Shown here: piece after piece, positions 11,363-40,818 of the stretch
Numbering within the stretch: the first letter of the stretch is position 1
Layout: each line of letters opens with the position of its first letter
Assembly (NCBI GenBank): GCA_947457935.1
Contig: CANGXP010000013.1
Location: 1-40,820, forward strand
Direction: 5' to 3'
Length of the DNA stretch: 40,820 nucleotides
Source of the DNA: Alphaproteobacteria bacterium
Lineage (GTDB): Bacteria; Pseudomonadota; Alphaproteobacteria; JAJTHO01; CANGXP01
The notes under the pieces: generated by a model
The model's input: the letters and a program-made list of their open reading frames with translations, nothing else
What the model was told of the DNA's origin: nothing
Databases searched by the model: none
Translations under genes and position numbers: made by a program

Positions 11363-12108
11363 CCACATACCGCACAGGCAGGGTCTTTGGCAACACGCAC
11401 CGTTTGTCCGCGCATGGTCAGCGCATCAAAAGTAAAGAGTGTTTTCCCTGAATCACCAAGTCCTAAAATTTCTTGTATAATGGCGGTTGCTTGCAACGTG
11501 CCTGCAACACCTGCAACAGGGCTGAGTACCCCATTTTCCGCGCAATTTCCTCTGTCGGATTGTTCGGGGCTTGCACCATATAAACATTGATAACAAGGAT
11601 AGTGGTTGTTTAAGTATGCTTTAAACGTCATCACCTGCACGCCAAAGCCTGTAACGGCAGCAGAAACCAACGGTTTGTTGTGCGTAAAGCAAAGTTTGTT
11701 GAGCAACAGGCGCGTTGCGAAATTATCGCTGCCATCGGCGATGATGTCATAGTCGTTGAGGAAAGCAGCATGGTTTTCCGTAAAGCGTGTAGCGTAGGGT
11801 ATGCAATGCACATCAGAATTAAGAGCGTGTAATTTTTCTGCTGCAACAACAGCCTTTTGCTTGCCAATATCTTGTTCTGTATAGAGGATTTGCCGTGCGA
11901 GATTGGATGTTTCCACAACATCATCATCCATAATCCCTAGCGTGCCCACCCCCGCTGCGGCAAGATATTGAAGGGCAGGGCAGCCCAAGCCGCCCGCCCC
12001 GATATACAGCACTTTGGCGTTCAGGAGGGCTTTCTGTCCCTTGCTGCCCACTTCGGGCAAGAGGATATGACGGGAATAGCGGTCGATTTGAGAGTCGGTG
12101 AGAGGCAT
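11359..12108 (-). CDS. moeB: HesA/MoeB/ThiF family adenylyltransferase
   Basis: 249 aa from the ATG at 12108 (MPLTDSQIDRYSRHILLPE, the usual start of this family). The nucleotide-binding loop is IGAGGLGCP, followed by DDDVVETSNLARQIL. An SDRGNCAENGVLSPVAG segment and two CxxC pairs (CYQC, CAVC) make the structural zinc site. These enzymes adenylate the C-terminal glycine of a ubiquitin-like sulfur carrier (MoaD or ThiS). Neither carrier is encoded here, so molybdopterin versus thiamine cannot be settled; MoeB is the common annotation. No rhodanese domain follows. Lies downstream of cysK on the same strand, separated by a structured palindromic element. Confidence 0.88.
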   Translation of the reverse strand: MPLTDSQIDRYSRHILLPEVGSKGQKALLNAKVLYIGAGGLGCPALQYLAAAGVGTLGIMDDDVVETSNLARQILYTEQDIGKQKAVVAAEKLHALNSDVHCIPYATRFTENHAAFLNDYDIIADGSDNFATRLLLNKLCFTHNKPLVSAAVTGFGVQVMTFKAYLNNHYPCYQCLYGASPEQSDRGNCAENGVLSPVAGVAGTLQATAIIQEILGLGDSGKTLFTFDALTMRGQTVRVAKDPACAVCG

Positions 12109-12131: not shown

Positions 12132-12246
12132 GCGGGCGCGCCAAAAATCTTCGATTTTTATAAAAAGAGCGGGGGAGTGTTGTGTGTTACGAGGAAAGGA
12201 CACAGCAGGCTCTTTTTATGTGCCGCTGTGCGGCAGGCGCGCCCGC
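12132..12246. repeat. Structured palindromic element, copy 1 (cloverleaf-like, 115 bp)
   Basis: The whole cysK-moeB gap folds into nested palindromes. The outer arms are GCGGGCGCGCC (12132-12142) and its exact complement (12236-12246). Inside are a hairpin AAAAATC-TTC-GATTTTT (12143-12159), a central 11-bp stem ATAAAAAGAGC/GCTCTTTTTAT (12160-12170, 12209-12219) around a 38-base loop, and a hairpin TGCCGC-TGT-GCGGCA (12221-12235). Outer stem plus three arms gives a tRNA-like cloverleaf outline, but it has no tRNA features. A second element with the same plan is at 31612-31725. Confidence 0.6.
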
Positions 12247-12254
12247 GTATCGCT

Positions 12255-13241
12255 TTACTCCAACCCATCAAACAACGCCGTAGACAAATACCGCTCCGCA
12301 AACGAGGCGATAATCACCACAATTTGTTTGCCCTTATTTTCAGGGCGGGCGGCAACACGGAATGCGGCTGCTAGGGCAGCACCGCTGGAAATACCAATCG
12401 GCAAGCCTTCGGTGGCGGCTGCTTCACGCGCCATTGTAAAGGCATCCTCGTTGCTTACCTGCACCACTTCATCAATTACGCCTTTGTCCAAAATGTCGGG
12501 CACAAAACCTGCACCAATTCCTTGGATTTTATGCGGGCCTGCTGTACCACCACTGAGCACAGGGCTGTCTTGTGGCTCGACAGCAATCATTTTGACCGAG
12601 GGTTTACGCGCTTTCAGCACTTGCCCAATCCCTGTGATGGTGCCGCCTGTGCCCACACCACTGATAACAATATCAACCGCGCCTTTTGTATCTAACCAGA
12701 TTTCTTCTGCCGTGGTGGCGCGATGAATAGCAGGGTTTGCCGTGTTTTGGAATTGTTGCAGCATGAGGGCATCGGGCAGGCTTGTGACCAGCTCTTCTGC
12801 CTTAGCAATCGCGCCTTTCATGCCTAAGGGGGCAGGGGTAAGTTCTAACTGCGCCCCCAATAATTTCAGCATTTTGCGGCGTTCCACCGACATGCTCTCA
12901 GGCATGGTGAGAATCAGTTTATAGCCCTTGGCGGCGGCAACAAAGGCTAATGCAATCCCTGTGTTGCCCGAGGTTGGCTCCACTAACACCGTGCCTGCTT
13001 TCAGTTTGCCACTTTTCTCTGCCGCCTCAATCATCGCAAAACCAATGCGGTCTTTTACAGAAGAAGTAGGGTTGAAAAACTCGAGTTTCGCCACCACGTC
13101 TGCCACCGCGTTATATTTTTCAGAAAGTTTTGCAACGCGCACAAGCGGGGTGCCGCCGATGGTGTCAATAATGCTGTCATAAATTTTACCGCGATGAAAC
13201 GGCGCGTTTTCAGGGGTAGCAGGGTTGGAAAGGGTGGTCAT
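12255..13241 (-). CDS. cysK: Cysteine synthase A (O-acetylserine sulfhydrylase)
   Basis: 328 aa. Makes cysteine from O-acetylserine and sulfide. The PLP lysine is Lys63 in [11 protein letters not shown], followed by the substrate loop [14 protein letters not shown], the phosphate-binding [13 protein letters not shown] and the C-terminal [11 protein letters not shown]. All match CysK rather than the CysM or cystathionine beta-synthase branches, and no extra domain is present. Full length for the family, with an N-terminal extension of about 15 residues. Separated from dut upstream by about 70 bp. Downstream, a palindromic element lies between it and the moeB-like gene. Confidence 0.95.
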
Positions 13242-15960: not shown

Positions 15961-16251
15961 TCAGATTTTTATCTGTAACTCCTCTTCTAAAATATTATCA
16001 AGCGTTGTTGTGCCCCGCGTACTCACCCATGCATCATTTTTCCACACAAAATGCCACGCACCGCTTACGGGTGACGACAACCACAACTGTTCGGTCGGCG
16101 CATGTTTATTGAACACATATTGTTTGCCGTCCACATCCTCAAGGGTAAGGATTTCGCCCGCCCAATCTACGCTATAGGCATCCCCAAGGGTATTTTCCAC
16201 GGCATCGGCAATGGCATCCAGCGTTTGTGTCGCCTGTTTTTGAAAAGGCAT
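15961..16251 (-). CDS. cyaY: Frataxin-like iron donor CyaY
   Basis: 96 aa, the normal size for CyaY. Frataxin signatures are present: an acidic first helix ([14 protein letters not shown]), [21 protein letters not shown] and [16 protein letters not shown]. CyaY binds iron on its acidic ridge and controls iron supply and cysteine desulfurase activity during Fe-S cluster assembly in the cytoplasm. Single gene, divergent from secA with about 70 bp between them. Confidence 0.93.
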
Positions 16252-16322
16252 CCTTGCATCTTTCTGTTAAGGACAGTAACTATGTAGCCTATCTACTGTA
16301 TCAAAAAAAACAAAGAAAAAAT

Positions 16323-19031
16323 ATGTTCTCTGCTCTTCTCAATGCCCTATTTGGTTCTGCAAATGATCGGGTGGTCAATCGCTTTAAGGCAACCGTACAG
16401 CAAATCAGCGCCCTTGAGGCAACCATCGCGCCGTTGTCTGATACAGCGTTGCAAGCAAAAACTGCATACTTTAAGGAACAACTGAGCAAGGGCAAAACGC
16501 TCAATGATATTCTGCCTGAAGCCTTCGCGGTGGTGCGGGAAGCGTCCAAGCGCACCCTTGGTTTACGCCCGTTCGATGTGCAGTTGATTGGCGGGATTGT
16601 GCTCCACAACGGCATGATTTCTGAAATGAAAACAGGGGAGGGGAAAACGCTGGTTTCCGCGCTGCCTGCCTACCTTAATGCACTCACAGGAAAAGGCGTA
16701 CACATCGTCACTGTCAACGACTACCTTGCAAAACGCGATGCCGAATGGATGGGCAAAATCCACCGTTTCTTGGGGCTGTCGGTGGGGTGTATTGTCAACG
16801 GGCTGAATGACACGCAGCGACGCGAGCAATATGCCTGTGACATCACCTATGCCACCAACAACGAACTGGGGTTTGATTACCTCCGCGACAACATGAAATT
16901 CACGCTGCAACAAATGGCGCAACGCCCTCTGCATTATGCGATTGTGGACGAGGTGGATAGTATTTTGATTGATGAAGCGCGTACCCCGCTCATCATCTCA
17001 GGGCCTGCCGAATCTTCTTCAGAACTTTATATCAAAGTTAATGCAGTGCTTAAAAATATTCCTGCAACTGCTTATGAAATAGATGAAAAACAAAAAAATC
17101 TTACCATGAGTGAGGACGGGCAAGAACAAATTGAAAAAGTCTTGCAAGAAGGCGGGCTGATTACCACAGGCGGGTTGTATGACACCCACAACATCAGCCT
17201 GTTGCACCATGTTCAGCAAGCCTTGAACGCGCAATATCTCTTTGTCCGCGACAGAGATTACATCGTCAAAGACAGCCGTGTGATTATCATTGATGAATTC
17301 AGCGGGCGGATGATGGAAGGGCGGCGGTATTCCAATGGTCTGCACCAAGCCATTGAAGCCAAAGAAAATGTGCCCGTGCAGCTTGAGAACCAAACACTCG
17401 CCTCCATCACTTTCCAGAACTATTTCCGTATGTACGAAAAATTGGCGGGCATGACGGGCACAGCGATGACGGAAGCCCCTGAATTTGAAGAAATTTATAA
17501 CTTAAGGGCAGTGGAAGTGCCCACTAACGTGAAACCACAGCGGATTGATGAGCACGATATTGTGTTCCGCACGGAAGCGGAGAAAATCAAGGCAATCACC
17601 GCGCTCATTGAAGAACGACACGCCAAAAAACAACCTATTCTGGTCGGCACGGTGAGCATCGCGAAGTCAGAAGAACTCGCCGCGCACTTGAAGAAAAAGA
17701 AAATCCCCCATGCGGTGCTGAATGCCCGCTATCACGAGCAGGAAGCTGCCATTATCGCTCAAGCAGGGCGGTTGGGCGCGGTGACCATTGCCACCAACAT
17801 GGCAGGGCGCGGCACGGATATTCAACTGGGGGGTAACCTAGAAAGAATGTTGGAAGAGGCAGGGGCAGACAAGGCGGAAGCCGTAAAAGCGCAATACCTT
17901 GCTGATAAACAAGCGGTGATTGAGGCAGGTGGATTGTATGTTATCGGCACAGAACGCCACGAAAGCCGCCGCATTGACAATCAGTTGCGCGGGCGATCAG
18001 GACGGCAAGGGGATAAGGGACACTCGTTGTTTTACATTTCCCTCGAAGATGATTTGATGCGGATTTTTGGCTCAGAACGGATTGATGGGGTGTTGAAAAC
18101 CATGGGGTTGAAAGAGGATGAACCAATCACCCATCCACTGCTCAATAAAGCCTTGGAACGTGCCCAAAAGAAGGTGGAGGCGCGGAACTTTGACATTCGC
18201 AAAACCTTGCTGAAATTTGATGACGTGATGAACGATCAGCGCAAGGTTGTTTATGAACAACGGCGCGAAATCATGCAGTCTACGACGCTGGCTGAAGTAA
18301 TAGATGAATTCCGCGAAGAAATCATCGAGACAATTGTGCATAAGGCGATGCCCCAAGGCACGTACGCTGAGCAGTGGGATATTGACGGATTATCAGAGGA
18401 CGTGAAACGCCTTCTTGCGCTGGATGCCCCTGTGCACGCTTGGGCAAAAGAAGAGGGCGTTGCGGAGGGCGAGGTTATCCGCCGCTTGTCGGAGATGACC
18501 GCCGCCATCATGGCAGCAAAACGCAGCACCGTTGAGCCGCACATTCGCCATCATGCGGAAAAGTCGTTGTTATTACAGATCTTTGATCAAGAATGGAAGG
18601 ATCACCTGCTTGCGTTGGATCACCTACGCCAAGGAATCAATTTGCGCTCTTACGGCCAAAAAGACCCACTCAATGAATACAAACGCGAAGCATTCGATTA
18701 TTTCGGGGCAATGCTCAATAGCGTGAAGGAAAAATGCACGGAATTTTCGATGCGGATGGAGATTCACACAGAAGTGGCGCAAATGCCTGAAGGACTGCCC
18801 GAGGGCATGGAACAACGCCTGAAAATGTTGCGCCATGATCCGTTTCTGAATGCAGACGAAAGCGCATTACCCTCAGATGATGATGCTCTGCCGCAAACCC
18901 GCGTGGTGCGCCAAGTTGAGGTGGAATTTGATCAAAATGACCCGAGCACATGGGGGCGCGTGCAACGCAATGCGCCGTGCCCGTGTGGATCGGGCAAGAA
19001 GTATAAACAGTGCCATGGGGTGTTGGTGTAG
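16323..19031 (+). CDS. secA: Protein translocase ATPase SecA
   Basis: 902 aa from the ATG at 16323, which gives the expected N-terminus ([16 protein letters not shown]). An in-frame upstream start overlapping cyaY is unlikely. Walker A is [14 protein letters not shown] and Walker B is [16 protein letters not shown]. Other landmarks are [38 protein letters not shown] and [16 protein letters not shown]. The C-terminus ends in the zinc/SecB-binding tail [15 protein letters not shown]. SecA drives preproteins through SecYEG; here clients would include TpsB, TpsA and the periplasmic half of the bc1 complex. The TAG stop coincides with the left tip of a MITE-like inverted repeat. Confidence 0.97.
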
Positions 19032-19192
19032 AGCTTGTCCTGAAACTAACGCATAAGTTTAAAACTGATCTTTTTGGCTGCAAAAGTACCCCAAAATAGG
19101 GAAAATACCCCAATATACCCCGCTATTTTGGTGCCATTTTTCGCCCAAAAATCTCAACTTTCTCCTCATACGTTAATTTTGGGACAAGCTCT
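19030..19192. mobile_element. MITE-like element with ~50-bp imperfect terminal inverted repeats
   Basis: AGAGCTTGTCC (19030-19040) is matched exactly by its complement at 19182-19192. The similarity continues inward imperfectly for about 50 bases (AAA, TAACG, TTTTTGG blocks in register). Total about 163 bp with no coding capacity. A TA dinucleotide flanks both sides, which would suit IS630/Tc1- or IS5-like transposases, but the duplication is too short to prove. It starts on the secA stop codon and ends about 20 bp before the promoter region of the toxin-antitoxin pair. Confidence 0.55.
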
Positions 19193-23666: not shown

Positions 23667-23817
23667 AACAATACCAGAGCCATTTAATTATTGATGAAAG
23701 CTAAGTTTTTAACTCCGCTTGTCATCCCCGCGAAAGCGGGGATCCACACTTTTTGAAGAAGAGTGGATTCCCGTTTGCACGGGAATGACAGAATAATTAA
23801 ATGGCTCTGGTAACAAT
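23667..23817. mobile_element. MITE-like element with perfect 21-bp inverted repeats and target-site duplication
   Basis: The element proper is 23673-23811 (139 bp). ACCAGAGCCATTTAATTATT at the left tip is mirrored exactly at the right tip. AACAAT flanks it on both sides (23667-23672 and 23812-23817), the direct repeat expected of transposition. Nested inside are two REP-like palindromes in opposite orientation: CCCCGCGAAAGCGGGG (23726-23741) and CCCGTTTGCACGGG (23770-23783). No reading frame of note. It sits in the 478-bp gap between pheS and the next gene. Apart from this element, the leader ORF and an A+T-rich tail (23818-23948), I see nothing in that gap. Confidence 0.75.
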
Positions 23818-24659: not shown

Positions 24660-24667
24660 CTGAATTG

Positions 24668-24692
24668 AAAAGCCTCCCATTGGGAGGCTTTT
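24668..24692 (+). terminator. Rho-independent terminator after the orphan membrane protein gene
   Basis: AAAAGCCTCCC (24668-24678), loop ATT, then GGGAGGCTTTT (24682-24692) followed by CTTT. An 11-bp perfect stem, 8 bp after the stop codon. The A-run before and T-run after make it usable in both directions, so it could also end hemF transcription from the other strand. Confidence 0.85.
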
Positions 24693-24699
24693 CTTTGCT

Positions 24700-31611: not shown

Positions 31612-31725
31612 GGCGCGGCGCGGCGGGACAAGAGTCCCGCAAACGAGCACTTTGCTGCAATGAGTTTGTTGGCAACGATAATTGCTGTGTGCTCGTTTCC
31701 AAAATCAAAGATTTTGCGCCGCGCC
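31612..31725. repeat. Structured palindromic element, copy 2 (cloverleaf-like, 114 bp)
   Basis: The outer arms are GGCGCGGCGC (31612-31621) and its exact complement (31716-31725). Inside are a hairpin GCGGGAC-AAGA-GTCCCGC (31623-31640), a central 10-bp stem AAACGAGCAC/GTGCTCGTTT (31641-31650, 31689-31698) around a 38-base loop, and a hairpin AAAATC-AAA-GATTTT (31701-31715). Read on the minus strand, arm order and sizes match the element at 12132-12246, including the 38-base central loop and the AAAATC/GATTTT arm. It fills the gap between the convergent petC and DUF2237 genes. Confidence 0.6.
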
Positions 31726-40706: not shown

Positions 40707-40795
40707 GTATTTTATTTAAAAAAATCCTTGAGCCGAGCGTGAAACGATGACGCCGCGTGTCATTCCCGCTGTTAACGATGCCCCCCTCACCCCAG

Positions 40796-40818
40796 CCCTC
40801 TCCCACAAGGGGAGAGGG
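40796..40818. repeat. REP-like palindrome at window end
   Basis: CCCTCTCCC (40796-40804), loop ACAAG, GGGAGAGGG (40810-40818). A GTCATTCCCGC string at 40758-40768 recalls the REP-like arms in the MITE at 23673-23811. The element is cut by the window edge. Confidence 0.5.

What the first reader, a model, noticed from the sequence alone, without database searches (positions are those of the whole stretch)
12132..12246. Cloverleaf-like structured element in the cysK-moeB gap, one of two of the same plan
Seen directly: perfect outer arms (11 bp), two small hairpins and a central 11-bp stem with a 38-base loop, in 115 bp that fill the gap almost exactly. The partner at 31612-31725 has the same arm order on the opposite strand, the same length to within one base, the same 38-base central loop and a matching AAAATC/GATTTT arm, while the stem sequences differ. 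Conserved shape with diverged stems suggests compensatory change, as in a mobile palindromic repeat or an RNA family. I know no named family with this exact plan.
Basis: partly seen in the sequence, partly recalled or inferred. Interest (0 to 1): 0.65.

Follow-up and report, generated by a model that had tools for sequence, protein, structure and literature searches.

The report
Four-copy cloverleaf-forming palindromic repeat doublet
Two gaps between genes in this bacterial window hold copies of a small, rare repeated DNA element, built from two mirror-image arms that each carry a hairpin, so that single strands fold into a cloverleaf; it resembles the well-known REP-doublet repeats but is a separate family, found only in this genome, whose two hairpins differ so that the cloverleaf is the only good fold.

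Summary
Element A (12132-12246) and partner B (31612-31725, minus strand) have the plan described, and every stem pair is Watson-Crick. I found two more copies in the same genome: C (contig 5) and D (contig 41). All four share the plan: 10-11 bp outer stem, AT-rich hairpin, 9-11 bp central stem, loop of 37-38 nt, GC-rich hairpin. Among B, C and D, seven pairs changed, always on both sides. Similarity stops at the arms: loops and flanks are unrelated. Models and patterns found no copy in up to 385 relatives, phages, plasmids or Rfam. A sequence-free scan of 85% of the genome found the same plan in other repeats: a TGTCAT...ATCCA family (one copy in this window, 23720-23790) that fits published CGTC-1 REP head-to-head dimers, and a CTGGAtACC family. 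Best reading: a small REP-doublet (REPIN/BIME-like) palindromic DNA element, separate in sequence from the GTAG and CGTC superfamilies, made as a heterodimer so that only the 'clover' fold is stable (by 10-13 kcal/mol). No Y1 (RAYT-type) transposase was detected in the genome, so the copies are probably relics or were moved by an enzyme I did not find. A new variant of a known kind, modestly interesting.

The parts
12132..12246 (+). element A (whole), in the gap between cysK (minus strand, stop at 12255) and moeB/ThiF (minus strand, likely ATG at 12108)
12132..12142 (+). A outer stem, 5' arm GCGGGCGCGCC (pairs with 12236-12246)
12143..12159 (+). A AT-rich hairpin AAAAATC-TTC-GATTTTT
12160..12170 (+). 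A central stem, 5' arm ATAAAAAGAGC (pairs with 12209-12219)
12171..12208 (+). A 38-nt loop, no similarity to the loops of the other copies or elsewhere in the sequence in hand
12209..12219 (+). A central stem, 3' arm GCTCTTTTTAT
12221..12235 (+). A GC-rich hairpin TGCCGC-TGT-GCGGCA
12236..12246 (+). A outer stem, 3' arm GGCGCGCCCGC
31612..31725 (-). element B (whole), between cytochrome c1 (plus strand, ends 31593) and a DUF2237 gene (minus strand, stop codon 31727-31729)
31716..31725 (-). B outer stem, 5' arm GGCGCGGCGC (pairs with 31612-31621)
31701..31715 (-). B AT-rich hairpin AAAATC-TTT-GATTTT
31689..31698 (-). B central stem, 5' arm AAACGAGCAC (pairs with 31641-31650)
31651..31688 (-). 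B 38-nt loop, not conserved
31641..31650 (-). B central stem, 3' arm GTGCTCGTTT
31623..31640 (-). B GC-rich hairpin GCGGGAC-TCTT-GTCCCGC
31612..31621 (-). B outer stem, 3' arm GCGCCGCGCC

Best explanation
A, B and two further genomic copies are a small, lineage-limited family of palindromic DNA elements that work like REP doublets (REPIN/BIME-type). Each is an inverted pair of about 36-39-nt units (outer arm, hairpin, inner arm) around a spacer of fixed length but free sequence. When the locus is single-stranded (lagging strand, or extruded cruciform), outer and inner arms pair and the two hairpins stand out, giving a four-way 'clover'. Because the two hairpins in one element differ in sequence, the competing long hairpin (arm against arm) is disfavoured, so the element is held in the clover form, the form proposed for REPINs to be recognised in an IS200-like manner. 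Shown here: anatomy, extra copies, two-sided changes, clover stability, arm-limited similarity, position beside stop codons, absence of a detectable Y1 transposase. Inferred: past mobility as single-stranded DNA by a trans-acting HUH-type enzyme now lost or not recognised; any present effect is probably passive (structure at the 3' ends of messages, or selfish persistence).
For: Two more copies by covariance model: C at contig 5 48234-48343 (E 4e-23) and D at contig 41 2709-2819 (E 4.7e-13); the model rebuilt with D recovers A (E 5.8e-4). In B, C and D 32 of 32 pairs are standard in all three, 7 pairs changed on both sides, none on one side; 0 of 500 shuffles reach that. In A-D 132 of 132 stem pairs are Watson-Crick with no G-U. 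DNA folding gives the clover on either strand of A and B, favoured over arm-to-arm pairing by 13.3, 11.4, 10.4 and 9.6 kcal/mol. Similarity between copies stops at the arms: flanks and loops unrelated, loop length fixed at 38, 38, 37, 38. All lie beside stop codons in unidirectional or convergent gaps, and D supplies the last 14 codons and the stop of a YgfZ-like gene whose homologues mostly end in a different tail, both usual for REPs (PMC3733652). The genome carries other families of the same plan, one fitting CGTC-1 REP dimers.
Against: Only four copies, whereas REP families usually have dozens to thousands. The arms lack GTAG or CGTC tags and CCA tails. No Y1 transposase (PF01797) match in a 99.6% complete genome. 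B and C have nearly identical arms but unrelated loops, which is odd for recent copying and implies old age or loop replacement. No target duplication or empty site was shown. The whole-class model search scored only 9 candidates per genome, so distant relatives may be missed.
Confidence: 0.66

Rival explanations
1. A structured RNA element (3' UTR stabiliser, attenuator or small RNA) maintained by selection on the RNA fold.
For: Strong two-sided changes, strong predicted fold, location just after stop codons, conserved arm sequences with free loops.
Against: No G-U pair in 132, whereas RNA-selected stems usually hold some; both strands fold equally well; orientation relative to neighbouring genes is mixed (A and C antisense to the upstream gene, B and D between convergent genes); no Rfam match; neighbours are functionally unrelated (cysK/moeB, cytochrome c1/DUF2237, a YgfZ-like gene).
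Confidence: 0.17
2. A MITE: ends of an unidentified DDE-type insertion sequence joined around a short spacer, with the hairpins as incidental subterminal palindromes.
For: Perfect terminal inverted repeats of 10-11 bp, intergenic, dispersed.
Against: No target-site duplication visible in the flanks; no longer element with these ends seen in 1.55 Mb in hand; hairpins conserved in structure rather than incidental.
Confidence: 0.12
3. Bidirectional transcription terminators.
For: Positions at gene ends; B and D lie between convergent genes.
Against: No T tract follows the outer stem in either direction; a cloverleaf is not the intrinsic-terminator shape; only four copies genome-wide.
Confidence: 0.04
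4. Chance inverted repeats.
For: GC-rich arms are low in complexity, and the outer-arm pattern alone occurs by chance in GC-rich genomes.
Against: Descriptor controls of 0 and 0/3/0, z-scores of -5.8 to -8.4, model E-values down to 1e-23.
Confidence: 0.01

Closest known systems
REPIN (REP doublet forming hairpin; Bertels and Rainey 2011, PMC3116915)
   Same: Two inverted hairpin-bearing units around a poorly conserved spacer whose length matters; compensatory changes; a 'clover' fold is proposed there as the form recognised for excision.
   Different: No GTAG-type tag, no RAYT gene detected, four copies only, 10-11 bp outer arms, and two different hairpins per element so the long-hairpin fold is weak.
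CGTC-tagged REP head-to-head dimers (Di Nocera et al. 2013, PMC3733652; include RPE-4/RPE-6 of Rickettsia conorii and dRS3 of Neisseria)
   Same: Head-to-head inverted dimers, often heterodimers, between unidirectional or convergent genes, no dedicated transposase known; the same genome carries a family that fits CGTC-1.
   Different: A-D lack the CGTC/TGTC tag, the AT-starting 8-9 bp stem and the CCA tail.
MITEs of DDE-type insertion sequences
   Same: Short, non-coding, terminal inverted repeats, dispersed.
   Different: No target duplication and no parental element seen; conserved internal hairpins.

Membership tests
REPIN / GTAG REP doublet | two inverted hairpin units with a short spacer | tested here: met
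REPIN / GTAG REP doublet | GTAG (or GGAG) tetranucleotide beside the hairpin | tested here: not met
   arms read GGCGCGGCGC-hairpin-AAACGAGC or GCGGGCGCGCC-hairpin-ATAAAAAGAGC
REPIN / GTAG REP doublet | a RAYT (Y1 transposase) gene in the genome | tested here: not met
   no PF01797 match in the own genome while 5 of 14 control genomes ring
REPIN / GTAG REP doublet | high copy number | tested here: not met
   4 copies in the whole genome by covariance model
CGTC REP dimer | CGTC/TGTC tag, 8-9 bp stem starting with AT, CCA tail | tested here: not met
   A-D sequences against the definition in PMC3733652; the window's other element at 23720-23790 does meet it
CGTC REP dimer | located downstream of coding regions, between unidirectional or convergent genes | tested here: met
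   A and C unidirectional, B and D convergent, each within about 11 nt of a stop codon
Rfam structured RNA families | covariance-model score at or above gathering | tested here: not met
Rickettsia palindromic elements | sequence similarity to RPE-1 to RPE-8 | not testable with these tools
   no RPE models held; RPE-4 and RPE-6 are CGTC REPs, which A-D are not
DDE-type MITE | target-site duplication | tested here: inconclusive
   no duplication visible by eye in the flanks of A-D, but no empty site available

The most novel reading that the evidence does not exclude
A family in which the arms are held nearly constant while a loop of fixed length (37-38 nt) is free or replaced at each site, locked by design in the clover form: either a mobile DNA that acquires a new loop at each insertion, or a scaffold whose variable loop has a site-specific role.
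Probability: 0.06. Interest if true: 0.72.

Novelty: new variant of a known kind. Interest (0 to 1): 0.36.

Why it matters
For REP doublets it is unsettled whether the long hairpin or the clover is the working fold. Here two-sided changes occur within each hairpin and within the central stem, while the two hairpins of one element differ, so arm-to-arm pairing is weak. That makes this family a natural test of the clover model. It also adds a non-GTAG, non-CGTC doublet in a genome with no detected RAYT, bearing on what moves such elements.

Tried and rejected
A genome contigs pattern scan for the AT hairpin with its GC arm gave 50 hits; none has the second arm and all look like chance. Searching the outer arms alone in 385 relatives and in viral contigs gave matches in GC-rich DNA, overall not far above the reversed-pattern control; three genomes with an excess (G001, G030, G045) were looked up and their matches show no element, and the viral and other loci gave one descriptor hit against one in the control. 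Blastn to plasmids and phages found nothing. A loop-as-guide idea: the loops match nothing else in 1.55 Mb better than shuffled loops do. Heterodimer preference in the TGTCAT family: C/T-type mixing exceeds random pairing (14 of 17, P 0.007) but mean divergence does not (P 0.15), so it is only suggestive. tRNA, tmRNA and Rfam readings rejected.

Full report
Observation. The partner 31612-31725 on the minus strand has the same order with 10, 6, 10 and 7 bp and a 38-nt loop. Both strands of A and B fold into the clover as single-stranded DNA with z-scores of -6.9 to -8.4.

Further copies. A pattern search and a two-sequence covariance model found C (contig 5, 48234-48343) and D (contig 41, 2709-2819). 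A model rebuilt with B, C and D also recovers A at E 5.8e-4 and nothing else in the genome. Among B, C and D seven pairs are changed on both sides and none on one side, and all cells pair. Across A-D all 132 stem pairs are Watson-Crick. A shares the AT hairpin and most of the central stem with the others but has other outer and GC-hairpin sequences, so it is a diverged member.

Extent. Similarity among B, C and D is confined to two arms of about 36 nt. Loops are unrelated in sequence (alignment scores within shuffled range) yet 37-38 nt long in all four, and flanks do not match.

Context. A lies between cysK and moeB, 8 nt after the cysK stop; B between cytochrome c1 and a DUF2237 gene, 1 nt after the latter's stop; C 3 nt after a stop between two co-directional genes; D between a 76-aa ORF (stop 11 nt away) and a convergent YgfZ-like gene (identified from its homologues in relatives and by general knowledge of the family; no profile search of it was completed, having failed). 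D supplies the last 14 codons and the stop of that gene; many homologues in relatives end in a P-x-W-type tail that D's gene lacks. This looks like insertion at the end of a reading frame, though no empty site is at hand.

Same plan elsewhere in the genome. A descriptor with no sequence content, run on 1.27 Mb and then a further 0.28 Mb, found A-D and further sets of clover-capable inverted doublets: TGTCAT-hairpin-ATCCA pairs, CTGGAyACC-hairpin-ATTCG pairs, a CGTCACCCCG type and a CCCTCACCCC type. The TGTCAT units have the TGTC tag, 8-bp AT-starting stem, 4-nt loop and CCA tail of CGTC-1 REPs, and their hairpins covary heavily (GC 13, TA 10, CG 2, AT 1 at one pair). In the sampled order relatives (292 kb) one weak hit appeared.

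Fold. With DNA parameters, A-D prefer the clover by 9.6-13.3 kcal/mol over structures in which arms may pair only with each other. The TGTCAT heterodimers mostly prefer it by 0.6-7 kcal/mol, while TGTCAT homodimers and the CTGGA family fold as long hairpins. A-D are thus the extreme of a series. Bertels and Rainey (PMC3116915, legend of Figure S11) propose that the long hairpin is unlikely to be recognised and that the clover is recognised in an IS200-like manner; Di Nocera et al. (PMC3733652) note that heterodimers may escape enzymatic clearance. Both ideas fit the design seen here; neither is tested.

Mechanism. The most likely account is a REP-doublet-like DNA element that was spread as single-stranded DNA and now persists as a few old copies. 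The lack of G-U pairs, equal folding of both strands and mixed orientation favour a DNA-level constraint or a hairpin-correcting process over selection on one RNA. No PF01797 gene is detected in the genome, so the mover is unknown.

Distribution. No copy was found by model in 96 relatives and 385 genomes of the class (the latter with few candidates scored), in 84,980 species genomes by pattern, or in plasmid and phage records. Records of the same or a very near genome may be left out of those collections. The organism's name is not known here.

Verdict. Real, repeated and structure-conserved; a new small variant of the REP-doublet kind rather than a new class.

Noticed in passing
window 23720-23790 (and flanks 23672-23692 / 23792-23812): A TGTCAT...ATCCA head-to-head dimer fitting CGTC-1 REPs, nested inside a perfect 21-bp inverted repeat TACCAGAGCCATTTAATTATT, as if the dimer had been inserted into a palindrome.
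   Followed up: partly
L150:17108-17178 and L154:159-229 (own genome), also L123:2492-2570 (10 bp): TGTCAT dimers flanked by an outer inverted repeat (GACTTACGCGAAACG in two, TACGCGAAAC in the third), so some dimers seem to sit inside a larger palindromic element.
   Followed up: partly
L088:6160-6302, L126:11503-11639, L154:19036-19172, L156:10067-10202 (own genome): A family of inverted CCCTCACCCCAACCCTCTCCC pairs with about 95 nt between the arms, a further palindromic repeat; one unit lies at window 40784-40804, near the contig end.
   Followed up: no
L152:13896-13964, L153:371-440, L148:3622-3679 (own genome): CGTCACCCCG-type hairpin doublets, likely another CGTC-type REP family.
   Followed up: no
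window 19030-19192: Imperfect inverted repeat with 70-nt arms (73% complementary, 23 nt apart), beginning at the end of the 934-aa ORF 16227-19031.
   Followed up: no
window 24667-24693: Perfect 13-bp inverted repeat GAAAAGCCTCCCA/TGGGAGGCTTTTC between the ends of two convergent ORFs, probably a terminator.
   Followed up: no
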